Made by a program: the position numbers and the translations under genes | Assembly (NCBI RefSeq): GCF_003399645.1 | Contig: NZ_NBXD01000030.1 | Location: 186,001 to 250,000 of the forward strand | DNA: 64,000 nucleotides | Reading direction: 5' to 3' | Source: Subtercola boreus | Lineage (GTDB): Bacteria > Actinomycetota > Actinomycetes > Actinomycetales > Microbacteriaceae | Part shown: positions 11,950-59,360 of the stretch, piece after piece | Position numbering within the stretch: the first letter of the stretch is position 1 | Layout of the letters: every line of letters begins with the position of its first letter | Notes under the pieces: generated by a model | What the model saw: the letters and a program-made list of their open reading frames with translations, nothing else | Told to the model about the DNA's origin: nothing | Databases searched by the model: none

Positions 11950-13413
11950 CTATTGGACAGAGGCGGTCAGCCGGGCGAGGTTGTCGAGCACCTGTGACCG
12001 CACGGGGCGCTTCAGCCACTCGTCGAGCTCGAGTTCGTGCGAGCGGCTGCGGTAGCTGTCTTCGACGCGGCGCAGGGAGTCGACGAAACGCTTGCCCCGC
12101 ACGAGCAACGACACCTCGAAGTTGAGGCTGAACGAGCGCATGTCCATGTTGCTCGAGCCGATCACCGCCACGTCGTCGTCGATGGTGAAGTGCTTCGCGT
12201 GCAGCACCACCGGTTTCTCGTAGAGGTAGATGCGCACGCCGGCACGAAGCAGGGTCTCGTAATAGCTGCGCTGAGCGTGGTAGACCACAGCCTGGTCGGC
12301 GACCTCGCAGGCGAAGAGCTGCACCTTGACGCCCCGCTCGGCAGCGGTGGTGATCGCGAAGAGCATGGAGTCGTCGGGCACGAAGTAGGGGCTCACGATG
12401 ACGAGTCGCTCCTGCGCGGAGTAGAGCAGCGCGTTGAAGAGCCGCAGATTGTTCTCACCCTCGAACCCCGGGCCGCTGGGCACCACCTGGCAGTCGAGGG
12501 ACTCGTCGGAGGGCACGACGCGAATCGGGTCTGCCTCACGGCTGAGCAGATCGTCTGTCTCGCTGTACCAGTCGGTGATGAAGATGGCGTTCACGCCTGC
12601 GACGACCGGCCCCTCGAGCCGCACCATCAGGTCTTTCCACTGCAACTTGCGCTTGATGTTCCCCCGCGTGTTGTAGCTCGGGTCGACCATGTTCTGCGAG
12701 CCCATGAACCCGATCAGACCGTCGACGACGAGCACCTTGCGGTGGTTGCGGAGGTCTGGCCGCCGCCATTTCGTTCGGAACGGATAGAACGGCAGCATCT
12801 CGTGGAAGTCGATTTCCGCCGCGCGCAGCCACCTCCTCGTCGCACGCCCCTTCGGGCTGCGGATGGTCGAGATGTGGTCGTACAGTACCCGCACCTTGAC
12901 CCCGCGGCGGTGCGCCGCGAGCAGGGCCTCGAAGAACGGCTTCGTCGTCTCATCGCGGCTCAGGATGTAGAACTCCGCGTGCACGTACCGCTCCGCCGTC
13001 TCGACCGCCGCCGTCATCGATGCGATGGACTCCTCATAGTCGGGCAGCAATTCGGCGTCGTTGCCACCCACCAGGGGCATCGCACCGAGAGTGCGATTGA
13101 GCTCGACGACTGACTTGAACCACTTCGGCCAGGTCTTCGTCTTCGACACCCGGTCGAGCCCGGCCGTGGTGTCGAGAATGTAGTCGTTGATCTCCTGCTG
13201 CTTCTCCAGCCGTTCCTTCGGCAGTTTCGTCGTGCCGAAGAGGCTGAAGAACAGGCTGCCGGGGATGGGCGCCACGAAGATCGCCATCAGCCACGCCATG
13301 GCCGCCGTCGGCCGCCGGTTGGGCGGCACGATGATCACCGCCGCGATGCGGATGAGCACCTCCACGATCAGGATGACTGCCGGCAGCGATTTGGGCAGTC
13401 GTCGGCGTTTCAT
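11950..13413 (-). CDS. cls: Cardiolipin synthase (phospholipase D family)
   Basis: A 487-residue membrane enzyme that joins phosphatidyl groups to make cardiolipin. Two N-terminal membrane helices (ILIVEVLIRIAAVIIVPP, and AMAWLMAIFVAPIPGSLFFSL) precede two HKD catalytic motifs: HRKVLVVDGLIGFMGSQN around residue 232 and HAKHFTIDDDVAVIGSSNMD around residue 412, each with the HxKx4D core. Length and layout match Cls-type synthases. The ATG at 13413 (MKRRRLPKS) is selected because the upstream extension of the frame is a shadow of the PPC gene. Confidence 0.93.
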   Translation of the reverse strand: MKRRRLPKSLPAVILIVEVLIRIAAVIIVPPNRRPTAAMAWLMAIFVAPIPGSLFFSLFGTTKLPKERLEKQQEINDYILDTTAGLDRVSKTKTWPKWFKSVVELNRTLGAMPLVGGNDAELLPDYEESIASMTAAVETAERYVHAEFYILSRDETTKPFFEALLAAHRRGVKVRVLYDHISTIRSPKGRATRRWLRAAEIDFHEMLPFYPFRTKWRRPDLRNHRKVLVVDGLIGFMGSQNMVDPSYNTRGNIKRKLQWKDLMVRLEGPVVAGVNAIFITDWYSETDDLLSREADPIRVVPSDESLDCQVVPSGPGFEGENNLRLFNALLYSAQERLVIVSPYFVPDDSMLFAITTAAERGVKVQLFACEVADQAVVYHAQRSYYETLLRAGVRIYLYEKPVVLHAKHFTIDDDVAVIGSSNMDMRSFSLNFEVSLLVRGKRFVDSLRRVEDSYRSRSHELELDEWLKRPVRSQVLDNLARLTASVQ

Positions 13414-13441
13414 GTCTGCACCATATCGTCTGAACCACAGG

Positions 13442-13900
13442 TCACTCGAACCGCAGATTCTCCAGGCCGTGGGCAGCGCTGTCTGCCACCCGCACCATAC
13501 GGGGAGCCAGCACCTCCTCCAGCACGAGCTCGACCGTGTAGTGGGTCGTCGCAGCGAGCAGATGGCCGGCTGCGGCGAGCCCGGCCCGGTCTTTGGCGCC
13601 GACCGCGACATGCAGGTGCACGGTGGGCGTGCCGGTCTGCTCGTTCCAGACCAGGGAGCCACTGCCGATGCCCTCGGTGTAGGCCACCTCGACGGCAGCG
13701 GGCAGCGGTGGCTCGGGGTCGGCGATGGGTTCGTGGCTCGCAATGAGACGCACCGAACGGAAGGCCCCGAGGAACACGGGGATGTACCCCTGCCGCACGT
13801 CGTGCTGCCGGCAGGCTTCGACAATGGAGCCGATGACGTCGTCTCCCGCCTGGAGCACGACGCCGATGCGGCGACCGGTGGTGAGTTCTCTGCTGATCAT
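13442..13900 (-). CDS. PPC-domain (DUF296) protein
   Basis: A 152-residue protein with the PPC/DUF296 fold: an N-terminal MISRELTTGRRIGVVLQAGDDVIGSIVEACRQHDV segment, GYIPVFLGAFRSVRLI, and the C-terminal HLHVAVGAKDRAGLAAAGHLL stretch with the conserved His and Gly residues of the family. Bacterial members are small trimeric proteins sometimes called DNA-binding, but lack the AT-hook of plant homologues, and no hook is seen here. The ATG start overlaps nothing; GGGGGC upstream is a weak ribosome-binding site. Divergent from the GntR gene. Confidence 0.8.
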   Translation of the reverse strand: MISRELTTGRRIGVVLQAGDDVIGSIVEACRQHDVRQGYIPVFLGAFRSVRLIASHEPIADPEPPLPAAVEVAYTEGIGSGSLVWNEQTGTPTVHLHVAVGAKDRAGLAAAGHLLAATTHYTVELVLEEVLAPRMVRVADSAAHGLENLRFE

Positions 13901-13983
13901 GGTGCCCCCAGGGTGCGACCGGCCTTCTGCTGGTGTCACCACTGTGGCAGAACATCGAGGTGCGCTCGACATAGGCTGGCGGT

Positions 13984-14019
13984 ATGACGTCGACTTCGGC
14001 CGTGAGGGAGCACCGGTGA
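13984..14019 (+). CDS. Possible 11-residue leader peptide upstream of the GntR regulator
   Basis: An ATG-to-TGA frame encodes MTSTSAVREHR. A TAGGCT -10 box (13972-13977) ends 6 nt before the ATG, as at other apparent leaderless genes in this window. The TGA stop overlaps the GTG start of the regulator gene in a GTGA configuration, so translation of the leader could feed ribosomes to the regulator. Whether it is translated is not shown. Confidence 0.4.
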   Translation: MTSTSAVREHR

Positions 14020-14774
14020 CAAGCACCTTCCCGGGCATCCCGACGCCCCGGCGCACCACCGACGACGAAGACCGGATCCGAAGCGCGGTGCTGCGGCATG
14101 TCAGGGAGGCGGCCGAGAACCGTCGCCCGCTGCCCGGTGAACTCGAGCTGGCCGCGACACTCGGATGCTCCCGACAGCAGTTGCGGCACTCCCTCCTCGA
14201 GCTGGAGCGTTCGGGCATCCTGCGTCGCCGACAGGGTGCGGCAACCACGGTCGACCCTGTGGCCCTCCGCATGAGCGTGCGGATGGAGGAGCAGTTCGAG
14301 CACGCCGAACTGCTGACGCGCATGGGGTACACGGCCACGGTCGAGGTGTTGTCGCGGTCGGTCGGGGCCATCCCTGTCGAGGTTCAGGCGCTGCTCGAGA
14401 GCGACCCTGCCTCGCTCTGCCTGTTCACCGTCAAGCGGTGGCTCGCCGACGGCGTGCCCGCGATGGTGGCCGACGACCGGCTGCTGCTGCCCCCGGGCAT
14501 GACCCAGGAGCCGGGCGGCTCCGTCTTCTCGGCCGCCGCCGATGTCTGGGGCGAGCCGGTGATCTGGGAGATCGCCACGCCCGGGGCCGCCATCGTCGAT
14601 GAGCGCATGAGCGGGCTGCTTGCGCTGCCCCTCGGTTCGGCGGTGATGACGCTGGAGCAGATCGGCGTCAGCGCGAGCGGCCGCCGCCTCTTTCACACCG
14701 TCGAGTACCACCGGCCGGGGATGGTGAACCACTCGCTCGTGAGAACGGTGCGCCCACCCTGGTGCACCAGCTGA
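14016..14774 (+). CDS. GntR-family regulator with UTRA ligand domain
   Basis: A 252-residue repressor or activator. The winged helix spans about residues 15-80 (ELAATLGCSRQQLRHSLLELERSGILRRRQG), and the rest is a UTRA-type ligand domain (LLTRMGYTATVEVLSRSV, VKRWLADGVPAMVADDRLLLP, and the closing VEYHRPG). GTG 14016 is selected because GAGGGAG lies 6 nt before it and because it overlaps a short upstream frame's stop. It is followed in the same direction, after 236 nt, by the ABC/amidohydrolase cluster, so it probably senses the substrate or an intermediate of that pathway. Confidence 0.85.
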   Translation: MTSTFPGIPTPRRTTDDEDRIRSAVLRHVREAAENRRPLPGELELAATLGCSRQQLRHSLLELERSGILRRRQGAATTVDPVALRMSVRMEEQFEHAELLTRMGYTATVEVLSRSVGAIPVEVQALLESDPASLCLFTVKRWLADGVPAMVADDRLLLPPGMTQEPGGSVFSAAADVWGEPVIWEIATPGAAIVDERMSGLLALPLGSAVMTLEQIGVSASGRRLFHTVEYHRPGMVNHSLVRTVRPPWCTS

Positions 14775-14793
14775 GTACACCGCCGACACACTC

Positions 14794-14807
14794 ACTTGTT
14801 TACAAGT
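14794..14807. promoter_or_regulatory. Candidate GntR operator
   Basis: ACTTGTTTACAAGT has perfect 6-bp inverted arms around TT. A related half site (GTTGTAAAAG) follows at about 14818-14827. It lies between the regulator gene and the transporter promoter, the place expected for a GntR/UTRA operator. Confidence 0.45.
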
Positions 14808-14932
14808 TCGTCACACGGTTGTAAAAGAGGGTGACGGATGGCACTGCAGAGTAGAGGAGGGCCCTCCTGAGGGCTCCGGGAGACCGAGACGGGTGATGCA
14901 AGCGTCACCGTGTGTCTCTGTATTTCGACTTG

Positions 14933-14963
14933 TTGACTAGCTTCGGCGCCCGCTCCCTAGGCT
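14933..14963 (+). promoter_or_regulatory. Sigma-70-like promoter of the 15.0-23.5 kb catabolic cluster
   Basis: TTGACT (14933-14938) and TAGGCT (14958-14963) are spaced 19 bp apart, somewhat long, about 45 nt before the ATG at 15011. The same -10 hexamer recurs at several other genes in the window. Confidence 0.45.
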
Positions 14964-15010
14964 TTGGGCATCCGCTCCCCTGCTCTCACACCCGACCCTG
15001 AGGACACGCC

Positions 15011-16087
15011 ATGACCCACAGCTCCCCCGCCCGCCAGCACACGCCCAGAGGACGGTTCGTCGCCATCCTCGCCGCCGGTGCCGCCCTGGCGCTCGCTCTC
15101 ACCGCCTGCTCGGGCGGCAGCAGCAGCACCGGAACCGCCTCAGGGTCGGCCGCTGTGAGCTACGGTGACATCGACATCCAGCTGTCGTACCTGAAGAACA
15201 CCGAGTTCGCCGGCGAGTACTACGCCGACAGCAAGGGCTACTTCACCGACGCGGGCTTCGGCACCGTCACGCTGACCGCGGGCGGGTCCTCGGCCGTCTC
15301 GGCCGAGGCGCAGGTGGCGACGGGCAAGTCGATCATCGGTATCAGCTCGCCGCTCATCACCGCTCCCGCCGTGGTGAAGGGCGCCGCGATCAAGATCGTC
15401 GCCGCCGACTACCAGAAGAACCCGTTCGACGTGGTCTCCCTGGCGAGCGCACCGCTGACGACCGCCGCCAGCCTGAAGGGCAAGACCATCGCGGTCGCCG
15501 ACTTCAACAGCCTTGTCTGGCAGGCCTTCCTCGCCGCCAACAACCTGAGCGCCGACGACGTGAAGACGGTTCCGTGGACGAACGGCCCCGACCAGCTCGC
15601 CAGCGGCCAGGTGGACGGGTACAACGGCTACACCACCGGCTTTCGCGGAACCGTCGGTGCGGCAGCGGTCCCCGCGGTCGAGTTCCTCCTCGCCGACCAG
15701 GGCCTCCCGCTCGTGGGCGAGACCCTCGTCGCCTCCCAGGACACGATCGACAACCACCGCGACGAGCTTAAAGCCGTGCTGACGGCGATCGTGAAAGGCT
15801 GGAAGGATGCCGTGGCCGACCCGCAGGCGGCAACCGACCTGACCGTCACCGACTACGGCAAGGACCAGAACCTCGACCCTGTGACGGAGCTCGCGGCGAT
15901 GACCAAGCAGAACACGCTGATGGTCACCGACGACTCCGCAGCGAACGGGTTGCTGACGATCACGCCTGATCTCATCGACCAGTCGATCGCCGCTCTGAAG
16001 CTCGCCGACATCGACATCACCGCCGACCAGCTCTTCGACACCTCGATCATCGACGAGGTCTTCGAGGACGACCCGAGCCTGAAGTGA
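15011..16087 (+). CDS. ABC transporter substrate-binding lipoprotein (NMT1/SsuA/TauA-like)
   Basis: A 358-residue exported binding protein, first gene of the cluster. A basic N-terminus, hydrophobic core and lipobox LTAC (Cys near residue 33) mark it as a lipoprotein, followed by a Ser/Gly linker. The mature part starts [31 protein letters not shown], the signature start of NMT1/THI5-like and SsuA-type proteins, which bind pyrimidines, sulfonates, nitrate, or aromatic acids. The ligand is unknown. Its TGA overlaps the start of the ATPase gene. Confidence 0.87.
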
Positions 16088-16908
16088 TGAACATCCCCGC
16101 ACCCACAGAGTCGCCGGCGGCAGAGGGCGTCGGCGTCGCCATCTCCGGCCTGTCGAAGACCTTCAGGCTCGGCCGCTCGAGCGTCACCGCGCTCGACGGT
16201 ATCGACCTGACGACTCCGCGCGGGTCGTTCGTCTCACTGCTCGGCCCGTCGGGGTGCGGAAAGTCCACGATCCTCCGCATCCTGGCCGGGCTCGACACGC
16301 CCACCACGGGCACCGCGAGCGTCAACGGCGAGACTCCCCGCACCGGTCGGAGCCGCGCGGGGAGCAATCTCGGTATCGCCTTCCAGGACTCCGCACTGCT
16401 GCCCTGGCGCTCGGTGCGCACCAACATCCGGCTGCCCCTGGAGATCATCGGCCGCCGGGACGAGGCGGCCGTGCAGGAGCTCATCGAACTGGTGGGCCTG
16501 TCCGGCTTCGAGGATGCCCGCCCGGCCCAGCTCTCGGGCGGCATGCGGCAGCGCGTATCGATCGCCCGCGCTCTGGTCGTTCGGCCCGACCACCTGCTTC
16601 TCGACGAGCCGTTCGGCGCGCTCGACGACATGACCCGCCAGCGGCTCAACCTCGAACTGCAGCGCATCTGGAGCGACCGGCCGGTGACCACCCTGATGGT
16701 GACCCACGGCATCCATGAGGCCGTGCTGCTCTCGGACTATGTGGCGGTCATGTCTGCCCGCCCGGGCCGCATCGTCGAGATGGTCGAGATCGCGCTGCCC
16801 CGGCCCCGCCCGGCAGAGATCATGCGCTCGCCGGAGTTCCACGAGATCGTCGACCACCTGAGCGAGCTGCTCTTCGAGGCGCACGGCCGGCGCGAGGCGA
16901 CCGCGTGA
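16087..16908 (+). CDS. ABC transporter ATP-binding protein (SsuB/TauB-like)
   Basis: A 273-residue ATPase. Walker [10 protein letters not shown] is near residue 53, signature LSGGMRQR near residue 150 and Walker [13 protein letters not shown] just after; this DEPFGALD form and the C-terminal [20 protein letters not shown] are typical of the nitrate/sulfonate/taurine importer subfamily. ATG 16087 (TGATG overlap with the previous stop) is chosen; GTG 16084, one codon upstream, is equally possible. The end overlaps the permease start by 4 bp. Confidence 0.92.
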
Positions 16909-17693
16909 CGACGATCTCCGCCCCCGTGGTGCGGGCCCTGGCCAGGCCGTGGCTGGGCGGCGCCGTCGGCATCGTGCTGCTGCTGGTCATCTGGGCGGCC
17001 TTCTCGACCGTGCTGCCGAGCAGTTCGATCGTGCCCACCCCGTGGGCGACAGCGGCCAGCGTGTTCAAGGACTTCGGTCCCTACTACTCCGGCAACCTCG
17101 CCTCGACGCTCGGCCGTGCCGGCTGGGGCTACCTCTGGGGCAATCTCGCCGGGCTGCTCGTCGCATCGATCGTGCTCATCGTTCCGCGGCTCGAAGAGAT
17201 CGTCACGCAGCTCGGAGTGGTCAGCCAGTGCCTGCCGATCACCGCGGTCGGGCCCATCATCATCCTCATCTTCGGTGGTCGGTCGGCCGCGATCTTCCTC
17301 GCCGCTCTGCTGGTGTTCTTCACGACGATGATCGGCGCGATTCTCGGGATGCGCGCGGCTCCCCGGGCCGCTCTCGATCTGGTCAGCGCCTACGGTGGCA
17401 GCCGGTTCACGCAGATTCGCAAGGTGCAGCTCGTCTCGGCCGTTCCCGCCGTGTTCACTGCCCTGGCGATCGCGGTGCCCGGAGCCCTGCTCGGTGCGGT
17501 GGTCGGTGAGTACCTCGGCGGAATCGACAGCGGAATCGGAGTTGCCCTGAACGCCGCCCAGCGCAACATCGACCCGCAGCGCGTCTGGGGAATGAGCATC
17601 CTGGCCGGCCTGATCGCGCTGCTCGGCTACGCACTCGTGTCGCTGATCGGCCGCTGGGTGACACCGTGGGTCCGCCGCGGAGGCTCGCACTGA
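16905..17693 (+). CDS. ABC transporter permease (SsuC/TauC-like), first subunit
   Basis: A 262-residue inner-membrane permease with about six segments and the BPD_transp_1 EAA-loop region ([44 protein letters not shown]). It starts at a GTG overlapping the ATPase stop. Having a second, different permease immediately downstream means the channel is probably a heterodimer rather than the usual SsuC homodimer. Confidence 0.9.
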
Positions 17694-18481
17694 TGCCCAC
17701 CATCCCCCGGCTGATCGTCAACCGTGTCGCGCTTGTCGTGCTCGCGGCCCTGATCGCCACCGGAATCTGGGTCGCGTTCCTCCCGCTCTTCCACGTCAGC
17801 CCGCTGATCGGCAAGAACCCGGCCGATGTGTGGGCCTACCTCGTAACGGGCAAGAACGCCGGCAAGAACCTGCCCGAGATACTGGGCTACCTGCTGCAGA
17901 CCATCCGCGACTTCGCCGTCGGCTATGCCGTCGGACTCGCCATCGCCTTCCTCGCCGCCGTGGTCTTCAGCCTGTCGGTGACGCTCGAGAACATCCTGAT
18001 GCCCACGGCGACCATCCTCCGTTCCATCCCGGTGATCGTCATCACCCCACTGATCACGCTGATCTTCGGGGTCACCATCGGCGGGGTCACCGCGATCGTC
18101 ACCCTGGTCGTGTTCCTGCCGGCGCTGGCGAACATCCTGTATGGGCTTCGACGAGCCCAGGCCCAGCACGGCGACCTCGTGCACGCCTACGGCGGCAGTT
18201 CGCTGCAACTGCTGTGGAAGGTCGCGCTGCCCGGGTCGCTTCCCGCGGTGATGGCGTCGGCGCGCATCTCGGTTCCGGCTGCGGTGACGGGCGCCATGAT
18301 CGGCGAGTGGCTGGCCACCGGCGGTGGGCTCGGCGGGTTCATCTCGCGCTCGGCCGGCAGTTTCGGCTACGACGCGATGTGGGCGTCGGCCGTCTTGATC
18401 ACGGGCTTCACGATGCTGGCCTATACGGTGGTCAGCATCCTCGATGCCCTCGTCGACCGGCGCTTCGGCGCGCTGGTCTGA
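17693..18481 (+). CDS. ABC transporter permease (SsuC/TauC-like), second subunit
   Basis: A 262-residue membrane protein of the same family as the preceding permease, with its own EAA-loop (LVHAYGGSSLQLLWKVALPGSLPAVMASARISVPAAVTGAMIGEW). The ATG at 17693 overlaps the previous stop as TGATG; an upstream GTG at 17666 in frame is a shadow. The pair, with one binding protein and one ATPase, makes a complete importer. Confidence 0.9.
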   Translation: MPTIPRLIVNRVALVVLAALIATGIWVAFLPLFHVSPLIGKNPADVWAYLVTGKNAGKNLPEILGYLLQTIRDFAVGYAVGLAIAFLAAVVFSLSVTLENILMPTATILRSIPVIVITPLITLIFGVTIGGVTAIVTLVVFLPALANILYGLRRAQAQHGDLVHAYGGSSLQLLWKVALPGSLPAVMASARISVPAAVTGAMIGEWLATGGGLGGFISRSAGSFGYDAMWASAVLITGFTMLAYTVVSILDALVDRRFGALV

Positions 18482-18495
18482 GTGGAGAACCAAGA

Positions 18496-19722
18496 ATGAA
18501 CGACGAGACCGACACCCGCGCAGAGGGAACGATCGACGGCATCACGGTGTGGAACGGCGAGCGCTCGCTCGGCCCGTCGAGGATCACCTGGCGGGGCGAC
18601 ACGATCGAGGCCGTCGAACCGGCCACCGAACGCTTCGAGGGGCTCGCGGTCATCCCGGGCCTCGTCGACACGCACGTGCACCTCGACACTAGCGTGCTCG
18701 ACGGTTCCGGCCCCGGTGACGCCTGGCCGCTCGTCACGCCCGACGAGGAGAAAGCGCTGCACGTCGCCGGTCACGCCCAGCGGTTCGCGCGCTACGGCGT
18801 CACGACCCTCCGCGACCTCGCGGCCTCCCCGGTTCAGATCGCGGTCGGTCGGGCCTTCGACCAGGGCGTGATCGCGGGGCCCCGGCTGCTCTCGAACGGG
18901 CCGGTCGGCATGACCGCCGGCCACGGCGACCTGTTCACGCCGCCGCGTTTTCGCGACCGGCCACCCGTGGCCGACTCCCCCGACGAGTGCCGCCGGCTGG
19001 TGCGCCAGTGGGCCCGCGAGGGTGCGACGGGCATCAAGATCTACACCAGCGGCGGCATCCTCTCGATGGGCGACCAGGTCGGCTGGCGCAACCAGACCCG
19101 TGCTGAGATCGCCGCCACGGTCGACGAGGCGCACGCGCTCGGCATGCTCGTCGCCGCGCACAGTCACAGCGCTGCGGGCATCGACATCGCCCTCGCCGTC
19201 GGTGTCGACTCCATCGAGCATGCCACCGGGCTGACGGATGCCCAGCTGCCGGCACTCGTCGAGGCGAACGTCTCTGTGGCTCCCACGCTGCTCGTCAACG
19301 ACATCGTCGCCGCTGGTGGCGGCGGTGTGCGCGCGGAGTCGGCGGAGAAGGCCCGGGAGGCGATCGCCGATCGTGACCCCGCCTTCCTCCGAGCCGGCCG
19401 GGCGGGCGTGCGCTTCGTGCTCGGAACCGACGCCAACGGCCGCTTCGTCGGCCACGGGGGCCAGCTCGAGGAGGTGCGCCTGATGCGCCGGGCTTTCGAC
19501 TGGAGCGCCGAGCGCACCCTAGTGGCCTCCACCTCGGATGCCGCCGCAAGCGTCGGCCTCGCCGGGCGGGTCGGGATGCTCGCGGCCGGCTTCGCGCCCG
19601 ACCTCATCGTCATCCGGGGCCGGCCCTGGCTCGACATCGACGACCTCCAGCTCTCCAACATCGTCGCCGTGGTGAGCCGCGGGCGGGTCATCTCCGGGGC
19701 GCTGCCGGTGCGCGAGCGATGA
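18496..19722 (+). CDS. Metal-dependent amidohydrolase
   Basis: A 408-residue cytoplasmic hydrolase of the amidohydrolase superfamily. The metal-binding THVHLD is at residues 59-64, GIKIYTSGG carries the likely bridging Lys, AHSHS and EHATGL give the other His ligands, and GTDANG the catalytic Asp. Family members cleave or deaminate cyclic amides, triazines, cytosine, hydantoins or imidazolones. ATG 18496 follows GGAG by 8 nt. Directly behind the importer, it is the best candidate for the first intracellular step (ring opening or deamination) on the imported compound. Confidence 0.85.
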   Translation: MNDETDTRAEGTIDGITVWNGERSLGPSRITWRGDTIEAVEPATERFEGLAVIPGLVDTHVHLDTSVLDGSGPGDAWPLVTPDEEKALHVAGHAQRFARYGVTTLRDLAASPVQIAVGRAFDQGVIAGPRLLSNGPVGMTAGHGDLFTPPRFRDRPPVADSPDECRRLVRQWAREGATGIKIYTSGGILSMGDQVGWRNQTRAEIAATVDEAHALGMLVAAHSHSAAGIDIALAVGVDSIEHATGLTDAQLPALVEANVSVAPTLLVNDIVAAGGGGVRAESAEKAREAIADRDPAFLRAGRAGVRFVLGTDANGRFVGHGGQLEEVRLMRRAFDWSAERTLVASTSDAAASVGLAGRVGMLAAGFAPDLIVIRGRPWLDIDDLQLSNIVAVVSRGRVISGALPVRER

Positions 19723-19812
19723 GCCGCCGCACGGTCGGCTCCCGAACGGTGAGCCGCAGCATCCCTGCCCGGGCCCACCCGACCGACGATTCTTCGAGCC
19801 AGAGAGCCCAAC

Positions 19813-20907
19813 ATGCACATCGATGAGAACCTGATCCGCGCCCTCCCCAAGGCCGAGGTGCATGTGCACCTCGAGGGCTCCCTCGAGCTCGCCGACCTGC
19901 TCGAGCTGGCCAAGGCCGCGGGAGCACCGCTTCCGGGCCCGGCGGCGACGCTCTTCGACGTGAGCACGCACGACAACCCCGGCGCCTTCGAGAACGGCAC
20001 CGGCGGCGGGGCGAGCAACGGCATCGGTGTCACCGGCCTCAGCGGTTTTCTGCAGTTCCTCGACTGGGAGGGCTCGCTCGTGCGCTCGCGCGAGCAGCTC
20101 GCACGCATCGCCTACCGGTTCGCCGCGCGGCAGAGCGCATCGGGCGTTCGGTACACCGATGCGATCATCAATCCGACGCACTGGGCGCCCTGGGCCTCAG
20201 ACGTGGCCGGTCTCTTCGACGCCCTGGCATCGGGGCTCGACGAGGCGGAGGCCGACGGACTCGCTACCGTCAACCTCTGCTACTCCCTGCTGCGCACCCA
20301 GAGCGCCGAGGCGGGCGTGCGGGCGGCGACCTGGCTCACCGAGAACCGCCCGGCGCGGGTGATCGCCCTGTCGATCGACGGTGACGAGCGCTCGGCGGGC
20401 AGAACGGGCATCCGGTTCGCCGAGGCGTTCGACATCGCAGCACGCGGAGGGCTCCGCCGCACCGTGCACGCCGGCGAATCGAGCGGGCCCGAGGGCGTGT
20501 GGGACGCGATCAGGCTGCTGCACGCCGACCGCATCGACCACGGGGTGCGGGCGATCGAAGACCCCGAGCTGGTGGACTACCTCGCTGAGCACGAGATCCC
20601 GCTCGGCATCTGTCCGCGCTCGAACCTCACCCTGGGCATCTACCCCGACCTCGAGTCGCATCCGCTCGCCGAACTGCAGCGGCGCGGAGTCATCGTCACT
20701 GTGAACACCGACGACCCGGCCCCGCTCGGCACCCGGCTCGAGAACGAGTGGGCCCTCGTCGCGGGTGCCTACGACTGGGGCCTGCCCGAGCTCGTCACGC
20801 TGGCGAAGGCGTCGGTCGCGGCCAGCTTCGCTCCGGATGATCTGCAGCGCTCGATGCTCACCGCGATCGATGACGCCGCCGTCTCCCTCGCACCCGCCTT
20901 CCGCTGA
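19813..20907 (+). CDS. Adenosine deaminase family hydrolase
   Basis: A 364-residue zinc hydrolase with all family motifs: HVHLEG (His17, His19), HAGES with the catalytic Glu, DHGVRA and NTDDP. Members deaminate adenosine, adenine or other amino-heterocycles. A Gly/Asn-rich stretch around residues 57-75 occupies the substrate-lid region, and there is no typical purine-salvage neighbour, so the true substrate may be another amino-substituted ring from this pathway. About 90 nt separate it from the amidohydrolase, without an evident terminator. Confidence 0.85.
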   Translation: MHIDENLIRALPKAEVHVHLEGSLELADLLELAKAAGAPLPGPAATLFDVSTHDNPGAFENGTGGGASNGIGVTGLSGFLQFLDWEGSLVRSREQLARIAYRFAARQSASGVRYTDAIINPTHWAPWASDVAGLFDALASGLDEAEADGLATVNLCYSLLRTQSAEAGVRAATWLTENRPARVIALSIDGDERSAGRTGIRFAEAFDIAARGGLRRTVHAGESSGPEGVWDAIRLLHADRIDHGVRAIEDPELVDYLAEHEIPLGICPRSNLTLGIYPDLESHPLAELQRRGVIVTVNTDDPAPLGTRLENEWALVAGAYDWGLPELVTLAKASVAASFAPDDLQRSMLTAIDDAAVSLAPAFR

Positions 20908-20941
20908 CACCCGCCCGCCACGCTCGCGCAGAGAGACCCCG

Positions 20942-22114
20942 ATGACCACCACCCTCAGCACCGCCGCCTCGCCCACCATCGCCCTCTCGGCCACCCCGTT
21001 CGCTCTGGCCGGCTGGGAGAACGAACTGGTCGAGGCCGTCGTCGAGCTCGCCCGCACCTTCGCGATGACAGCGGCGCACTATGACGACAGGGCCGAGATC
21101 GCCGTCGGCAACCTCGTGTCGCTCCACGACGCCGGGCTCTCCGAGGCGATGCTTCCACAGGAGGTCGGGGGGCGGGGCCTCAGCTACCAGGCCTTCGGCG
21201 AGATCGTGCGGGTGATCTGTGAGGCCGACCCCGCCACCGGCACCATCTTCACCATGCACTCCGGCGCCGCGGTCAGCCTCGCCCTGCTCACGAAAGACAC
21301 GCTGGGATCGTTCTACGCCGACGAGGTACTCGCCGGCAAGCGGTTCTCGAACGCGCTCTCGGAGCCGACCAGCGGCAACCGCTTCCTCAACCCGCAGCAG
21401 GCCGCCGTGCCCGTCGAGGGCGGCTGGGCTCTCGAGGGGGCCAAGCGGTTCGTCTCGGGCAGCGAGATCGCCGACTACCTCCTTGTGAACGCGCTGGTCG
21501 ACGGTGAACCGGTGTTCTTCGGAGTCCCCACGGCCGACGACTCCATCTCGATCATCCCGATCTGGGACACGCTGGGCCTTCGGGCGACGCGCAGCCAGCT
21601 GCTGTCCTTCGACAACACCGTGCTGCGCGTCGAACAGCGCGGGCGCACGCCCCGTCTGACCGATTTCGCGGTCATTCCCGCAGGCCTGCCGATGATCTCC
21701 CTGGGCGTCGCCGACGCCGCGCTCGCCGCGCTCATCACGCACGCCCGGGGGCGCATCATCCTCGGCAAAGCGCTCAGCCACCAGCAGTGGCTGCAGTTCG
21801 AGGTGGCCGAGGTGCAGAGCCGACTCGAGGCGGTGCGGGCGTTCGTACGCCAGACGCTGTGGCAGGCCGACCACCACGAGCCCTCGTTCTTCTCGAACCT
21901 CTCGCGCGCCAAATACCTGGCCAACAAGGTGGCGGTCGAGGTCGCCCAGCTCGCGGTGCGTGCAGGCGGAGCATCCGGGTTCCTGAAGACCTCGCCCATC
22001 CAGCGGCACCTCCGCGACGCCGAGGCGGGCCAGCTGATGGCGTACTCCACCGAAGTTCTGGCGGGCGAGATCGGCCGGGACGTGTTCGGCATCGCGCCCG
22101 GTGAGGTCGACTGA
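20942..22114 (+). CDS. Acyl-CoA-dehydrogenase-fold flavoenzyme (DszC/SfnB-like)
   Basis: A 390-residue protein with the acyl-CoA dehydrogenase three-domain fold: N-terminal helices (LHDAGLSEAMLPQEVGGRGLSYQAF), a middle beta domain (GGWALEGAKRFVSGSEIADYLLVNA) and a C-terminal helical domain (FLKTSPIQRHLRDAEAGQLMAYSTEVLAGEIGRDVFG). In clusters with flavin monooxygenases, such proteins are usually FMNH2- or FAD-dependent N/S-oxygenating enzymes rather than fatty-acid enzymes. ATG 20942 is used because the longer frame is a shadow of the deaminase gene. Two nucleotides separate it from the next gene. Confidence 0.8.
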   Translation: MTTTLSTAASPTIALSATPFALAGWENELVEAVVELARTFAMTAAHYDDRAEIAVGNLVSLHDAGLSEAMLPQEVGGRGLSYQAFGEIVRVICEADPATGTIFTMHSGAAVSLALLTKDTLGSFYADEVLAGKRFSNALSEPTSGNRFLNPQQAAVPVEGGWALEGAKRFVSGSEIADYLLVNALVDGEPVFFGVPTADDSISIIPIWDTLGLRATRSQLLSFDNTVLRVEQRGRTPRLTDFAVIPAGLPMISLGVADAALAALITHARGRIILGKALSHQQWLQFEVAEVQSRLEAVRAFVRQTLWQADHHEPSFFSNLSRAKYLANKVAVEVAQLAVRAGGASGFLKTSPIQRHLRDAEAGQLMAYSTEVLAGEIGRDVFGIAPGEVD

Positions 22115-22116
22115 CC

Positions 22117-23493
22117 ATGGCCGATCGGCCCCGCATGCTGTTCAACGCCTTCAACATCTTCTCGGCCTCCCACCACGACCAGGGCATGTGGGCCTGGCCG
22201 GGCAGCCGGCAGCTCGAATACAACGACATCGACTACTGGGTCGACATCGCGCAGCTGCTCGAGCGCGGGCACTTCGACACGCTGTTCTTTGCCGATGTGC
22301 TCGCACCCTATGACACCTTCGGGGCGTCGCGCGAGGCATCCGTCTACAGCGGTATGCAGTTTCCCATCAACGACCCTGGCGAACTCATCCCCGCCCTGGC
22401 CTACGCCACCCGTGACCTCGGGTTCGTGCTCACCCAGAACATCCTGCAGGAGCCCCCGTACTCGTTCGCGCGCAAGATGTCGACGCTCGACCACCTCACC
22501 CGCGGGCGTATCTCGTGGAACATCGTCACCACGTTCCTGCCCGGCGCCGGCCGCAACCTCGGTTTCGGCGGACTGCCCGACCACGGTGACCGGTACGCGC
22601 GGGCCGACGACTACATCGAGGTGGTCTACAAGCTCTGGGAGGCGAGCTGGGAAGACGACGCCGTGGTGCGCGACAAGGCCCGGCGGCAGTACAGCGACCC
22701 CTCGAAGATCCACGAGATCAACCACGTCGGCCCGTTCTACGACGTGGTCGGCCCGCACCTCAGCGAACCGTCACCGCAGCGCACCCCTTTCCTGATGCAG
22801 GCGGGCGTCTCGCCGCGGGGCCGCGACTACGCGGGGCGGAACGCGGAGGGGTTGTTCATCAACGCCCTCTCACCCGACGAGGCGGGGCCGGTGGTTCAGG
22901 ATGTTCGGGCCGCCGCCGTTCGGCACGGCCGCTCGGCGCAGAACGTGAAGCTCTTCGGCATTCTCGGGTTCGTCGTCGGCAGCACCGAGGAGGAGGCGAA
23001 GCGCCTGCACGAGGAGATCACCGACTTTCAGAGCATCGAGGCGAACCTGGCGAAGCAGAGCGTCTTTCTGAACTACGACTTCAGCCGGCTCGACCCGGCC
23101 GAACCGATCTTCGAGATCGCCGCGCGCCCCGAGGGCCAGACCGGCGTCGTGGCCGATCTCATTGCGATGTCGCCGAACCCCCGCTACACGATCGGCGAGC
23201 TGGTGCGCTGGTACGGCAACCTGCGCGTGGTGGGCACGCCCGAGCAGATCGCCGACCACCTCGAGAAATGGCAGGATGCCGGTGTCGACGGAATGAACGT
23301 GCAGTACGTCGTCTCCCCCGGCACCTTCGAAGACTTCGTGGACCACGTCAGCCCGGAGCTCCGCCGGCGCGGCATGATGCAGGAGTCGTACGCACCGGGC
23401 ACCCTCCGCGAGAAGATCTTCCCGGGCGCCGGGCCCCACCTCCCCGACGAGCACCCCGCCCGCGCCCTCCGCCGCGCCGCCTTCGGGGGCTGA
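22117..23493 (+). CDS. NtaA/DmoA/SnaA-family FMN-dependent monooxygenase
   Basis: A 458-residue luciferase-like flavin monooxygenase. The start MLFNAFNIFSASHHDQGMWAWPGS, the EPPYSFARKMSTLDHLTRGRISWNIVTT core and the QAGVSPRGRDYAGRNAEGLF flavin segment are characteristic of the nitrilotriacetate/dimethyl-sulfide/dibenzothiophene-sulfone monooxygenase group, which insert oxygen next to C-N or C-S bonds using reduced FMN from a separate reductase. No reductase gene is present in this cluster, so one must be supplied from elsewhere. Last gene of the unit; followed by a strong inverted repeat. Confidence 0.9.
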   Translation: MADRPRMLFNAFNIFSASHHDQGMWAWPGSRQLEYNDIDYWVDIAQLLERGHFDTLFFADVLAPYDTFGASREASVYSGMQFPINDPGELIPALAYATRDLGFVLTQNILQEPPYSFARKMSTLDHLTRGRISWNIVTTFLPGAGRNLGFGGLPDHGDRYARADDYIEVVYKLWEASWEDDAVVRDKARRQYSDPSKIHEINHVGPFYDVVGPHLSEPSPQRTPFLMQAGVSPRGRDYAGRNAEGLFINALSPDEAGPVVQDVRAAAVRHGRSAQNVKLFGILGFVVGSTEEEAKRLHEEITDFQSIEANLAKQSVFLNYDFSRLDPAEPIFEIAARPEGQTGVVADLIAMSPNPRYTIGELVRWYGNLRVVGTPEQIADHLEKWQDAGVDGMNVQYVVSPGTFEDFVDHVSPELRRRGMMQESYAPGTLREKIFPGAGPHLPDEHPARALRRAAFGG

Positions 23494-23534
23494 CGCCCGC
23501 GCGCCCCGCGCCCGCACGCGCTGCGCCCCGTGCG

Positions 23535-23588
23535 CGTTTTGCGCAAAAGCACCGAAGACCGGAGGTTTAGGTGCTTTTGCGCAAAACG
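23535..23588. terminator. 19-bp perfect inverted repeat between convergent genes
   Basis: CGTTTTGCGCAAAAGCACC (23535-23553) and its exact complement (23570-23588) flank a 16-nt loop. Each arm itself contains the 12-bp palindrome TTTTGCGCAAAA. Position between two convergent operons suggests a bidirectional terminator, but the nested palindromes are unusual and also fit a REP-type element or protein-binding site. Confidence 0.65.
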
Positions 23589-23594
23589 GGGCGG

Positions 23595-24620
23595 TCAGGC
23601 GAGCAGGAGGGCGATGTTCGTCTCGCCGCGCTCGAGATCACCGGCCTCGATGCGGCGGGCGATCTCGACGACGCGGGCGTTGGCCGGGGCGCTGCCGCCC
23701 ACCTTCGCCTGCTCGTCGACCACCAGGCCGTTGATCTCGTGCACCTCGTTGCGGCGACCCTTGACCCAGTCCTGCAGCGACGTCGTGCGCGTCGTCGGCG
23801 ACGAGAATCGTTTCAGCACCTGGTCGAGCAGCTGCTCGGCGAACGCGTCGGGGTCGTCGAGCGCGGCATCCGTCATGCCGAAGATGGGACGCAGCCGACT
23901 GCCCGAGGCCACCGCCGTACGTGCCGCCTCGCTCCCGCACTGCAGCATGAACTCGTACATTCCGGGCACCTGGATGGCGCGAGCCAGCTCGAGGTCCAGG
24001 ATGGCCGACGGCACCAGCTCGGCCGCATTCACGATGAGCTTGCCCCACTTCGACGAGCGGATGTCGTCGGAGATCTCCACGGTTCCGGCATGCCCGAGAG
24101 CGGCCGCGACGGGCGCCAGCCTCGCGGCGTCGACCGCCGGGTGGATGCCCCCGATCGCGAACCACGCGTGCTCCGGCGGGGTCTCGCGGTTGACGATCCC
24201 CGGCTCCCACATGTTCGACGCCACCTCGATGACGGCACCGACGGTTCGCTCCGGCCCCACGATGTCGGCGATGTCGTCGAGGCTCATACCGTTCTGCAGC
24301 CCCACCACGAGACCGTCGGGCGTGACCATCGGCTTGATCAGCTCGCACGCCCAACGGGTGTCGTAGGCCTTCATCAAGATGAAGACGATGTCGAACGCCT
24401 CGCGCAGCTCGGCGACCTCGTAGAGGTGTTTCACGACGACAGAGGTGTTCTCGGTGCGGTCGGGCATCACGACGGTGATGCCGTTCTCGCGCATGGCCTC
24501 GACGTGCACGGGCCACTGCTCGATGAAGGTGACGTCGAGCCCGGCGCGGGTGAGGTCGGCGGCGATACCGGCACCGTTGGCACCGGTTCCGACGAAGGCG
24601 ATCTTCGGTGAGGCGCTCAT
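23595..24620 (-). CDS. Ketopantoate reductase family (ApbA/PanE-like) protein
   Basis: A 341-residue NAD(P)H-dependent 2-hydroxyacid/2-oxoacid oxidoreductase of the PanE family. The nucleotide-binding loop KIAFVGTGANGAGIAADLTRAGLDVTFIEQW is at the N-terminus, the hinge region carries LVVGLQNGMSLDDI, and the catalytic Lys is likely in SSKWGKLIVNAAE. Its ATG overlaps the SDR stop by 4 bp, so it belongs to the catabolic operon and probably reduces or oxidises a hydroxy/oxo intermediate rather than making pantothenate. Confidence 0.82.
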   Translation of the reverse strand: MSASPKIAFVGTGANGAGIAADLTRAGLDVTFIEQWPVHVEAMRENGITVVMPDRTENTSVVVKHLYEVAELREAFDIVFILMKAYDTRWACELIKPMVTPDGLVVGLQNGMSLDDIADIVGPERTVGAVIEVASNMWEPGIVNRETPPEHAWFAIGGIHPAVDAARLAPVAAALGHAGTVEISDDIRSSKWGKLIVNAAELVPSAILDLELARAIQVPGMYEFMLQCGSEAARTAVASGSRLRPIFGMTDAALDDPDAFAEQLLDQVLKRFSSPTTRTTSLQDWVKGRRNEVHEINGLVVDEQAKVGGSAPANARVVEIARRIEAGDLERGETNIALLLA

Positions 24621-25396
24621 ACGAGGATCATCCCGCCCTCGATCGCGATGACCTGCCCGGTGATGTAGTCCGAGTCGCTCGAGGCGAGAAAGACCGCGGT
24701 GGGAACGAGGTCGGCGGGGGTGGCGGGCCGACCGAGCAGGATGTCTCCCGACATCCCCTCGAAGCCGGCGTCGGGCTGGCCCATGTCTGCAAGGTCCCGG
24801 TCGAGCTGGTCCCACAGCGGTGTCGCCACCACCCCCGGGGCGAAGGCGTTCACCGTGATACCCAGGCCTGCGAACGAGCGTGCGGCCGCCTGCGTCAGCG
24901 AGATGACGGCAGCCTTGGAGGCACTGTAGGGTGCAAAACTCGGGAAGCCCTGGCGGCCGGCGATCGAGGCAGTGTTGACGACCTTGCCGCCGCCGCCCTG
25001 GGCGATGAACTGCTTCACGGCCTGCTGGGTGCCGAGCACGACGCCGAAGCTGTTGACGTTCAGAATGAGGTCCCACTTCGCCTTGGTGATGTCGAGGAAG
25101 TTCTCGGGAGCGTTCAGCCCGGCGTTGTTGAAGTACACGTCGAGACGGCCGAACTCGGCCACGGCCGCGGCCACACCGGCGGCCACCTGATCCTCGTCGG
25201 TCACGTCGACGCGCACGGCGATCGCGCTGCCACCCGCTTCACGGATGTCACCCGCCACCGCCTCGGCCGCCTCGAGGTTCAGGTCGGCGATCACGATGTT
25301 CGCCCCCTCGGCCGCCATGCCGCGGGCGATTCCGGCACCGATACCCGATGCCGCTCCCGTCACGATGATCGTCTTCGATTGCAGTCGTGCTGTCAT
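24617..25396 (-). CDS. Short-chain dehydrogenase/reductase (acetoin/polyol dehydrogenase-like)
   Basis: A 259-residue classical SDR: cofactor motif TGAASGIG, acidic residue after strand 2 (IADLNLE, indicating NAD preference), NNAG, catalytic Ser in NTASIAG and YSASK. The closest functional types by eye are 2,3-butanediol/acetoin or sugar-alcohol dehydrogenases. AAGGAG stands 6 nt before the ATG. It lies behind the E2 gene and overlaps the PanE-like gene, so it probably interconverts a hydroxyketone and diol in this pathway. Confidence 0.85.
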   Translation of the reverse strand: MTARLQSKTIIVTGAASGIGAGIARGMAAEGANIVIADLNLEAAEAVAGDIREAGGSAIAVRVDVTDEDQVAAGVAAAVAEFGRLDVYFNNAGLNAPENFLDITKAKWDLILNVNSFGVVLGTQQAVKQFIAQGGGGKVVNTASIAGRQGFPSFAPYSASKAAVISLTQAAARSFAGLGITVNAFAPGVVATPLWDQLDRDLADMGQPDAGFEGMSGDILLGRPATPADLVPTAVFLASSDSDYITGQVIAIEGGMILV

Positions 25397-25408
25397 GTCG
25401 TACTCCTT

Positions 25409-25454
25409 CTTCAGATCAGGGTGCTGAGGGGCTTCAGATCAGGATGCTCAGGGG
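25409..25454. repeat. 23-bp tandem duplication at the 3' end of the E2 gene
   Basis: Two directly adjacent 23-bp units (25409-25431 and 25432-25454) differ at two positions. The right copy holds the final codons and stop of the E2 gene; the left copy is an out-of-frame intergenic duplicate. Confidence 0.8.
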
Positions 25455-30497: not shown

Positions 30498-32015
<1,518 letters not shown>

Positions 32016-32075
32016 GGGGCCTGTTTCGCGTCTGGGGAGTTGAGGAGCGTGCGGGGAACGAGCGGGGAGCACCGC

Positions 32076-35794: not shown

Positions 35795-35839
35795 GAGATC
35801 ACCTTTGTTCTGTGGTGCTGGTGTGAAGCGGGGACCGCT

Positions 35840-35872
35840 TCTGGTGCGGGTGCTTCGTCTGGTGCGGGTGCT
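35840..35872. repeat. 15-bp direct repeat before the binding-protein stop
   Basis: TCTGGTGCGGGTGCT occurs at 35840-35854 and 35858-35872 (18-bp period), between the fusion gene and the stop of the binding-protein gene. Confidence 0.75.
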
Positions 35873-55766: not shown

Positions 55767-55937
55767 GCTGTGGCTCCTGTCCCCGTCACGGTTCACACCC
55801 GTTCCCGCGCAGTGACGGGCCCGCGCCGGCCCTCAAGGGAGCGGCGTAGAACATACGGATGTCGAATGAACGGCAGGTGAACTCCGCTCACGCCTCCAGG
55901 GGTTCTTAACATAGGGACCATTCCGTGACTTACTTGT

Positions 55938-55954
55938 ATACCCCTATGGGGTAT
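55938..55954. promoter_or_regulatory. CsoR-type copper operator upstream of csoR
   Basis: ATACCCCTATGGGGTAT has perfect 7-bp arms around TAT, the form of CsoR operators (G/C-rich dyad with TATACCCC). It lies 19 nt before the csoR start; a close twin lies at 62171-62187. Confidence 0.85.
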
Positions 55955-55972
55955 GAATGGTGAGGTGTGGTG

Positions 55973-56254: not shown

Positions 56255-56286
56255 CGACCGCCCGTGCGCGGAGAGAGAAGAAGCTG

Positions 56287-56532
56287 ATGAATGAAGCGAC
56301 AACGAACGTGGTTCGGGCGCACTATCTGGTCTCGGGGATGACGTGCTCCCACTGCGTCGCCAGCGTGACCGAAGAGATCAGCGCAGTTCCCGGGGTGCAG
56401 AGCGTCAGCGTTTCTCTGAACGCGGGGGGCGACTCCACGGTGATGGTTGTCAGCTCGGCCCCGGTTCCGGTCGATGACGTGCGCGCCGCGATCGCCGAGG
56501 CCGGCTATGAAATGGTCTCTGGCCAGGGATGA
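56287..56532 (+). CDS. copZ: Copper chaperone (CopZ-like HMA protein)
   Basis: An 81-residue HMA-domain protein with the metal site GMTCSHC (Cys20, Cys23) and the ferredoxin-like pattern [37 protein letters not shown]. It carries Cu(I) to the ATPase encoded next, whose ATG overlaps this stop by 4 bp. Confidence 0.93.
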
Positions 56533-59290: not shown

Positions 59291-59360
59291 TGGCGTCAGC
59301 CCGCACCCCGGGTACTTCGCGCACTCGATTTCTCACTCCCACTGAAATGGATAGTAAAAA

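What the first reader, a model, noticed from the sequence alone, without database searches (positions are those of the whole stretch)
14016..23493. Candidate undescribed catabolic pathway for an N- or S-heterocycle
Seen: one regulator, a complete SsuABC-type importer with two different permeases, an amidohydrolase, an adenosine-deaminase-like enzyme, a DszC/SfnB-like flavoenzyme and an NtaA/DmoA-like monooxygenase in one directional block with overlapping or short gaps. Established: the families act on amides/aminated rings and C-N or C-S bonds. Inference: the imported compound is deaminated and ring-opened, then oxidised by FMNH2-dependent enzymes. I know no characterised pathway with this combination. 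The missing flavin reductase must be external.
Basis: partly seen in the sequence, partly recalled or inferred. Interest (0 to 1): 0.8.

Follow-up and report, generated by a model that had tools for sequence, protein, structure and literature searches.

The report
Regulated purine-like compound scavenging operon
A bacterium carries a self-regulated set of genes that appears to import a purine-like compound, strip its amino group and oxidise what remains; the same switch and enzymes, with different importers, recur in related bacteria, but the exact compound is still unknown.

Summary
The nine + strand genes at 14016-23493 are real: GntR/UTRA regulator, NMT1/THI5-type binding protein, ATPase, two permeases, COG1228-type amidohydrolase (AHD), ADA-like deaminase, acyl-CoA-dehydrogenase-fold flavoprotein (FmoC) and NtaA/DmoA-type monooxygenase. 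The host appears to be a Subtercola.

New: a palindromic operator-like site, ACTTGTNNACAAGT, lies before the importer genes (14795, degenerate copy 14929). In 17 genomes, 26 of 30 places of its 13-base core lie in these clusters, including the only place in this genome. Among 56 FmoC loci a perfect site occurs in 12 of 12 with the GntR orthologue and 0 of 44 without. In one genome it precedes ADA and AHD, 1.25 Mb apart. This argues for one regulon.

Leifsonia, Kutzneria and Leucobacter pair FmoC-NtaA with a Bmp/PnrA-type importer instead; other relatives add adenine-deaminase-like genes. Best reading: a dedicated import-and-dismantling regulon for an aminopurine-type compound, with oxygenases removing a further substituent, possibly sulphur. 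Substrate and order of steps are inferred.

The parts
13442..13897 (-). PCC/PPC domain protein gene, divergent from gntR; the same family recurs near AHD in relatives
   Evidence: Pfam PF03479, 51.4 bits (an earlier try in a wrong frame gave nothing); homologues in AHD/GntR clusters; perfect site (L035) or one-mismatch site (L110, L118) at its mapped start; no site at its own start in the window
14016..14774 (+). GntR/UTRA regulator (GTG start)
   Evidence: PF00392 and PF07702; orthologues 46-75% in clusters that carry the site
14794..14807 (.). perfect palindromic operator-like site ACTTGTTTACAAGT
   Evidence: the only place of the 13-base motif in this genome; binding by GntR is inferred
14929..14940 (.). 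second, degenerate copy (CTTGTTGACTAG, one mismatch), identical in Subtercola vilae
15011..16087 (+). substrate-binding protein, NMT1/THI5 family
   Evidence: PF09084, 124.5 bits; PDB 4nmy 30.6 bits
16084..16908 (+). ABC ATPase of the importer
   Evidence: PF00005
16905..17693 (+). ABC permease 1
   Evidence: PF00528
17693..18481 (+). ABC permease 2
   Evidence: PF00528
18496..19722 (+). AHD: amidohydrolase related to arginine/Xaa-Pro carboxypeptidases and ochratoxinase (the label COG1228 is recalled)
   Evidence: PF01979; best PDB matches 3mtw, 3be7, then 9kov, 2qs8, 4c5y
19813..20907 (+). ADA-like deaminase of a separate subfamily (HxHLEG, NPTHW, HAGESSGP, NTDDP)
   Evidence: PF00962 236.8 bits; TIGR01430 above cut-off; motif comparison
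20942..22114 (+). FmoC: acyl-CoA-dehydrogenase-fold flavoprotein with Ala (A367) where the aligned acyl-CoA dehydrogenases have Glu
   Evidence: fold model pLDDT 88.5, Foldseek
22117..23493 (+). NtaA/DmoA-family FMN-dependent monooxygenase, nearest solved relatives HcbA1, DmoA, LadA
   Evidence: TIGR03860 464.7 bits, cut-off 279.7; PDB matches

Best explanation
A dedicated, locally repressed import-and-dismantling regulon for an aminopurine-type compound (a base or nucleoside carrying an amino or N6-substituted amino group plus a further substituent). How it most likely works: (1) GntR/UTRA sits on ACTTGTNNACAAGT before the importer genes and lets go when the compound or a product binds (site found; binding and ligand inferred). 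(2) The NMT1-type ABC importer brings the compound in; relatives use a Bmp/PnrA-type importer for what is probably the same job (gene content shown; substrate inferred). (3) ADA hydrolyses the exocyclic amino group to an oxo group; AHD removes an amide-linked (acyl or carbamoyl) group when there is one (family chemistry; substrates inferred). (4) FmoC and NtaA, fed reduced flavin by a reductase encoded elsewhere, oxidise the product and cut a carbon-heteroatom bond, working like the DszC/DszA couple or HcbA1 (inferred from families; that chemistry is recalled). (5) The oxopurine left over goes to ordinary salvage or, in this genome, to the xanthine-dehydrogenase-family (PF01315) and uricase (PF01014) genes on contig C12 (genes shown; link inferred).
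For: Shared regulon: perfect site in 12 of 12 FmoC loci with the GntR orthologue and 0 of 44 without; in 17 whole genomes (chosen because they carry the clusters) 26 of 30 distinct places of the 13-base motif lie in these clusters, the single place of this genome included; counted by strand, 48 motif matches against 9 of the reversed control pattern (places checked); in G195 the only two places are upstream of ADA and of AHD, 1.25 Mb apart. Purine-type substrate: of the 10 of 56 loci with FmoC-NtaA side by side, 8 have a Bmp/PnrA-type importer (6 Leifsonia, Kutzneria, Leucobacter) and 2 an NMT1-type one (S. vilae, Cohnella); ADA orthologues share clusters with an AdeC-type gene in Microbacterium-type, Frankia and other loci and with a TadA-like deaminase (below its cut-off) in four; ADA keeps HxH, HAGE and DDP in 16 of 16 compared. 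Oxygenase chemistry: NtaA is above its family cut-off; FmoC has Ala at the dehydrogenases' Glu position in 47 of 47. Three of six Leifsonia clusters carry an FMN-reductase gene (Pfam PF03358 for L081; close homologues in L076 and L083).
Against: No ligand or activity is known for any member. The binding protein here is NMT1/THI5-like, a family known (recalled) for pyrimidine and thiamin precursors rather than purines. FmoC-NtaA plus importer occurs in Kutzneria, Leucobacter and Cohnella without a detected ADA orthologue and without the operator site. AHD was not found in the Leifsonia genomes and elsewhere has the site before an operon with a Dpp peptide-type importer, which suits a peptide-like molecule. 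38 of 56 FmoC loci (Nocardia and others, some on short contigs) show no ADA orthologue, NtaA or importer binding protein. The Frankia locus L101 has ADA-AdeC-FmoC without gntR or site, and L232 has gntR (46%) without a site, though its contig starts just before ADA. This genome already has PF01315 and uricase genes, so ordinary purines do not need the cluster. In this genome alone the reversed control has 1 strand match against 2 of the motif, and in the window 7 of 100 shuffles reach the two matches seen with one mismatch allowed; the case rests on the comparison. Related species share ancestry, so the counts are not independent events.
Confidence: 0.5

Rival explanations
1. Sulphur scavenging from an organosulphur compound that is not a purine: FmoC and NtaA work like DszC/DszA or DmoA/SfnB, and the deaminase and amidohydrolase handle other parts of the molecule.
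For: NtaA's second-best solved relative is dimethyl-sulfide monooxygenase; SfnB is FmoC's second-best curated model, below cut-off; the top Foldseek match is a 3-sulfinopropionyl-CoA desulfinase. In Leucobacter the cluster stands near cystathionine-beta-synthase-like, cystathionine gamma-synthase and OAH-sulfhydrylase-like genes and an SfnB-like enzyme; in Cohnella near an NlpA/MetQ-like protein and further NtaA genes; in Leifsonia L077 an OAH-sulfhydrylase-like gene ends 0.9 kb from the ADA site.
Against: The probes for the sulphur genes were taken from the Leucobacter and Cohnella loci, so counts with them would be circular and no enrichment is claimed. Bmp-type importers and purine-type deaminases would be odd for a non-purine. 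Acyl-CoA-dehydrogenase folds score nearly alike in Foldseek.
Confidence: 0.17
2. A pyrimidine-type compound (thiamin or its fragments, a pyrimidine or a pterin) is the substrate; the NMT1-type protein imports it, ADA removes the aminopyrimidine amino group and the flavoenzymes open the ring, as RutA does for uracil (RutA chemistry recalled).
For: NMT1/THI5 family membership and the weak 4nmy match; weak RutA matches of NtaA (35 bits) and of the second NtaA-type gene of S. vilae (65.4 bits), both far below the cut-off of 498.3.
Against: ADA is above the curated adenosine-deaminase cut-off; orthologous clusters use Bmp/PnrA-type importers and carry AdeC-type genes.
Confidence: 0.13
3. An oxygenase route for the purine ring itself that stands in for xanthine dehydrogenase and uricase.
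For: Six of six Leifsonia genomes with the cluster have no PF01315 and no PF01014 match.
Against: This genome and all five other Subtercola genomes tested have both families, two of the six together with the cluster. The six Microbacterium-type genomes tested have PF01315 but no NtaA beside FmoC.
Confidence: 0.08
4. Two neighbouring but separate units: a purine-nitrogen unit (AHD, ADA, importer) and an unrelated monooxygenase pair.
For: The FmoC-NtaA pair occurs without ADA, and ADA without the pair, in several loci.
Against: Gaps of 2-90 bases on one strand with no terminator-like site on the + strand; the same pairing in Leifsonia, Subtercola and G195 with different importers; a divergent FmoC homologue (43%) with its own site in G042.
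Confidence: 0.07

Closest known systems
DszC/DszA dibenzothiophene desulphurisation couple
   Same: An acyl-CoA-dehydrogenase-fold flavoprotein paired with an NtaA-family monooxygenase, reductase from elsewhere in the genome (Dsz properties recalled)
   Different: FmoC scores 55.8 against a DszC cut-off of 850; NtaA is nearer HcbA1, DmoA and LadA than DszA; no DszB seen; importer and deaminase present
HcbA1 (hexachlorobenzene dehalogenase), DmoA, LadA
   Same: NtaA/DmoA family, near full-length alignments, 396-411 bits
   Different: Substrates named for those do not suggest a deaminase-linked cluster; the window's group (57-93% identical, 10 genomes) stands apart from matches at 39-48%, although the FmoC-adjacent NtaA of Cohnella is in the lower band (46%)
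Riboflavin/lumichrome catabolism (RcaE, Lum pathway)
   Same: NtaA-family enzyme on a nitrogen heterocycle; RcaE 301 bits
   Different: The abstract and section list of PMC12746152 name a P450, thiamin-dependent decarboxylase, xanthine oxidase, Rieske dioxygenase and catechol dioxygenase; none is among the genes of this cluster
Adenosine deaminase / adenine deaminase
   Same: ADA keeps HxH, HAGE and DDP; above the TIGR01430 cut-off
   Different: HxHLEG and NPTHW instead of the HDHLDG and SSNLQT of the c27 group or the SDDP(A/P)YFGGY of the c5 group
HutC-type GntR/UTRA regulators
   Same: Best curated match TIGR02018 HutC, 45.3 bits; palindromic site
   Different: Far below the cut-off of 220; no gene of the cluster reaches a hut cut-off

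Membership tests
NtaA/DmoA-family FMN-dependent monooxygenase | score above the curated TIGR03860 cut-off over the full length | tested here: met
   464.7 against 279.7 bits, residues 9-433
NtaA/DmoA-family FMN-dependent monooxygenase | uses FMNH2 supplied by a separate reductase | not testable with these tools
   reductase-family genes exist elsewhere in the genome
Acyl-CoA dehydrogenase | catalytic Glu in the C-terminal helical domain (role recalled) | tested here: not met
   A367 faces Glu in all 4 PDB alignments shown and is Ala in 47 of 47 FmoC sequences; the alternative base position of some members was not tested
SfnB / DszC | curated cut-offs of TIGR04022 / NF043015 | tested here: not met
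   108.2 against 430.9 and 55.8 against 850 bits
Adenosine deaminase (TIGR01430) | curated cut-off and HxH, HAGE, DDP motifs | tested here: met
   243.5 against 216.55 bits; motifs in 16 of 16; below the cut-offs of the narrower PRK09358 models
Adenosine deaminase (TIGR01430) | acts on adenosine | not testable with these tools
   subfamily motifs differ from the two other ADA-like groups compared
SsuABC / aliphatic sulphonate importer | SsuA_fam cut-off | tested here: not met
   41.9 against 163.5 bits
Xaa-Pro dipeptidase (NF051886) | curated cut-off | tested here: not met
   199.3 against 500 bits
Single operator-defined regulon | shared site tracking the regulator gene across genomes | tested here: met
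   12 of 12 and 0 of 44 FmoC loci; 26 of 30 places; exception L232
Single operator-defined regulon | regulator binds the site and the genes are co-expressed | not testable with these tools
   needs bench work

The most novel reading that the evidence does not exclude
The regulon salvages hypermodified purine nucleosides, such as tRNA position-37 residues (t6A, i6A and their 2-methylthio forms) or methylthioadenosine. AHD cuts a carbamoyl-amino-acid side chain, ADA (and AdeC in relatives) removes the N6-bearing group, and FmoC-NtaA strip a methylthio group in a Dsz/HcbA1-like C-S cleavage, giving up nitrogen, sulphur and a plain oxopurine. It would use every enzyme and explain the nucleoside- and peptide-type importers as well as the sulphur-gene neighbours, but none of it is tested.
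Probability: 0.1. Interest if true: 0.82.

Novelty: new variant of a known kind. Interest (0 to 1): 0.56.

Why it matters
It turns a list of loosely annotated genes into a candidate regulon with its own operator, and gives named strains (Subtercola vilae, Leifsonia) in which one substrate search would assign function to an unplaced deaminase subfamily, an acyl-CoA-dehydrogenase-fold flavoprotein without the dehydrogenase Glu, an NtaA-family oxygenase and perhaps a PCC-domain protein. How bacteria return modified purines to metabolism is only partly worked out: the abstract of PMC13296781 says that the demethylation of N6-methylated bases was not established even in E. coli.

Tried and rejected
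Riboflavin/lumichrome catabolism was considered because RcaE is an NtaA relative; set aside on the enzymes named in PMC12746152 (abstract and section list). An oxygenase stand-in for xanthine dehydrogenase was weakened. FmoC as an acyl-CoA dehydrogenase was set aside by the missing Glu. A sulphur reading was kept as a rival only: its probes came from the loci that suggested it. Plasmid searches gave only distant matches: NtaA 419 records at E <= 1e-60, all under 60% identity; FmoC 1 record at E <= 1e-40; AHD 1 record at E <= 1e-60; the two regions opened had no annotated feature. FmoC in 394 class genomes: 3 with a match at E <= 1e-70, own genome included. The four operator matches outside the clusters were opened: three lie inside called reading frames, one in a gap, and no cluster gene was labelled near them; taken as chance. 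Of the one-mismatch hits, five (L070 10958, L231 12687, L049 3339 and 3840, L059 18791) lie inside a gene or far from one. No sigma-70-like promoter and one terminator-like site, on the - strand, were found in 13400-23800.

Rows left out: the ADA motif comparison uses 16 ADA orthologues; the L072 copy was not called as a frame, L070 is the same genome as L034, and the copies in L231, L232, L040 and L043 were not added. Alignment A2 uses 46 of the 56 FmoC loci (not L082, L087, L089, L105, L111, L114, L122-L125) plus the window. Searches used 48 of the 56 loci as handles; one search used 27 of those 48. One search covered 17 genomes chosen from those with clusters. L233 was fetched and not analysed beyond one 100-aa stretch without a family. 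Two Pfam tries were in a wrong frame and empty: the PCC gene (right) and the ketopantoate-reductase-like gene (right).

Literature: ten answered searches, seen as listings with abstract openings; none listed a matching pathway. Papers opened: PMC12746152 (abstract and section list), PMC12133300 (passages), PMC13296781 (abstract and section list).

Full report
What is there. The window is C30:186001-250000 of an unnamed 3.67 Mb genome. A same-genus genome with the cluster, G090, has its match at the same position of a contig of the same length (104,977) as Subtercola vilae DB165, so the host appears to be a Subtercola (inference; G090 and G632 are treated as one genome). The nine genes of the finding are intact, with spacings from a 4-base overlap to 90 bases apart from a 236-base gap after gntR.

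Same genus. In one search (299 family genomes), 2 of the 7 same-genus genomes listed have the ADA orthologue at E <= 1e-95. In S. vilae the order is kept (L034/L070): gntR, [second NtaA-type gene], SBP, ATPase, permease 1, permease 2, [Amidohydro_3 gene], AHD, ADA, FmoC, NtaA, with 75-93% identities.

Wider family. AHD has matches at E <= 1e-60 in 32 of 249 family genomes. Relatives at 72-75% (L035-L037) lie near an ADA orthologue (59-66%), a Bmp/PnrA-type importer, an AdeC-type gene and a PCC gene. Many more distant AHDs (about 57-62%) lie by Dpp-type importers, PucR regulators, PCC genes or ADA-like genes of other subfamilies, some by an NMT1-type importer.

FmoC across named genomes. One scan of genome contigs gave 56 loci. 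By tblastn labels, NtaA follows FmoC in 10 of 56 (S. vilae, 6 Leifsonia, Kutzneria buriramensis, a Leucobacter MAG, Cohnella); an ADA orthologue (56% or more) is present in 13 of 56; a Bmp-type binding protein in 11 of 56; an NMT1-type importer in 3 of 56 (S. vilae, Devosia, Cohnella; the Cohnella binding protein by Pfam; the Devosia contig ends after FmoC); 38 of 56 have no ADA orthologue, NtaA or importer binding protein (Nocardia and others; some contigs are short). Leifsonia order is ADA, gntR, Bmp importer, FmoC, NtaA; three of six also carry an FMN-reductase gene and an aldo/keto reductase just upstream. Five Microbacterium-type loci have gntR, ADA, AdeC and FmoC (41-45%) with either the Bmp importer and a TadA-like deaminase (L112, L115) or AHD and PCC (L110, L113, L118). 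G195 has ADA-gntR and, facing them, NtaA-FmoC-Bmp importer at 416 kb, and AHD-Dpp at 1667 kb. The ADA orthologue was found in 14 of 27 FmoC genomes asked, AHD in 7 of 48 (none of the 6 Leifsonia). NtaA at 57% or more was found in 10 of 48; nine adjoin FmoC, one (G672) lies on another contig beside an NMT1-type importer and an SfnB-like gene; the FmoC-adjacent NtaA of Cohnella is only 46%.

The operator. CTTGTTTACAAG lies at 14795-14806 and a one-mismatch copy at 14929-14940, both in the gap before the importer genes. Twenty-nine perfect copies give ACTTGTNNACAAGT, with A before the core in 26 of 29 and T after it in 22 of 29. Every perfect site listed lies within 261 bases of the mapped start of a cluster gene (ADA, binding protein, AHD, FmoC, TadA-like, PCC, gntR or the second NtaA-type gene); five one-mismatch hits do not or lie inside genes. 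Among 56 FmoC loci the perfect site is in 12 of 12 with the GntR orthologue and 0 of 44 without, with 17 site places and 0 of the reversed control. Among 30 AHD loci it is in 8 of 8 scored as having the orthologue; 3 of the 22 others also have a site, but two of those (L036, L037) do show a gntR match and the third (L048) belongs to G195, whose gntR is at its other locus. L232 (G155), fetched later, has gntR (46%) and no site; its contig starts just before ADA. In 17 whole genomes chosen for their clusters the 13-base motif has 48 strand matches at 30 distinct places, 26 in these clusters and 4 elsewhere; the reversed control has 9 strand matches; this genome has one place (two strand matches) against one control match. 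Species here are related, so these are not independent events. GntR binding is inferred.

The enzymes. ADA is above the curated adenosine-deaminase cut-off but forms its own group: HxHLEG, NPTHW and HAGESSGP(E/D) in 16 of 16, unlike two other ADA-like groups in the same alignment. FmoC has the acyl-CoA-dehydrogenase fold (model pLDDT 88.5; Foldseek TM about 0.8 to the 50 matches listed, best E a 3-sulfinopropionyl-CoA desulfinase) but Ala where the four aligned dehydrogenase-type chains have Glu. NtaA is a full-length member of the NtaA/DmoA family, nearest solved relatives HcbA1, DmoA and LadA. AHD's nearest solved relatives are arginine and Xaa-Pro carboxypeptidase-type enzymes, and ochratoxinase. 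PMC12133300 (passages) describes the PF01979+PF13382 enzyme YerA as an N6-methyladenosine/N6-methyladenine deaminase, and PMC13296781 (abstract) reports that E. coli Add, but not AdeC, deaminates an N6-methylated substrate; so both families can reach N6-modified purines.

Reading. The operator ties AHD, ADA, importers, FmoC and NtaA into one candidate regulon. Swapped importers that include the Bmp/PnrA type, and neighbouring deaminases, point to a purine-type compound. Families of FmoC and NtaA point to oxidation and cleavage of a carbon-heteroatom bond, in the way of DszC/DszA or HcbA1 (recalled chemistry). Sulphur is suggested by the Leucobacter, Cohnella and one Leifsonia neighbourhood but cannot be counted as enrichment. 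The genome's PF01315 and uricase genes lie within about 20 kb of each other on C12, so the cluster is more likely for a special purine than for ordinary ones. Substrate, order of steps and regulator ligand are open.

Noticed in passing
13442-13897 (-): PCC-domain (PF03479) gene divergent from gntR; homologues recur near AHD in L110, L113, L118, L035-L037, L040, L043, L044, in some with the same site at their start. Function of bacterial PCC proteins unknown to me; may be a further pathway part.
   Followed up: partly
L043:7932-9248, L042:7928-8917 and others: An ADA-like subfamily near AHD genes with HCDVDQ in place of the HAGE motif in 5 of the rows compared, so probably with another substrate.
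   Followed up: no
L034:11342-12709 and L034:5833-7626: S. vilae has a second NtaA-type monooxygenase and an Amidohydro_3 gene inserted into the same cluster.
   Followed up: partly
23595-29146 (-): Convergent downstream block: ketopantoate-reductase-like (PF02558), short-chain dehydrogenase, 2-oxoacid dehydrogenase E2 and a fused E1 protein of 735 aa. No operator site near it.
   Followed up: no
54543-62227: Chromate transporter and two P-type ATPases (one with an HMA domain), a metal-resistance-like stretch.
   Followed up: no
30498-36977 (-): Aldehyde dehydrogenase, zinc alcohol dehydrogenase and a sugar-type ABC importer whose ATPase domains and permease are read as one 855 aa frame.
   Followed up: no
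L230:11445-14186: In G042 an FmoC homologue (43%) with its own site stands beside TatD-like and creatininase genes and a Bmp protein.
   Followed up: partly
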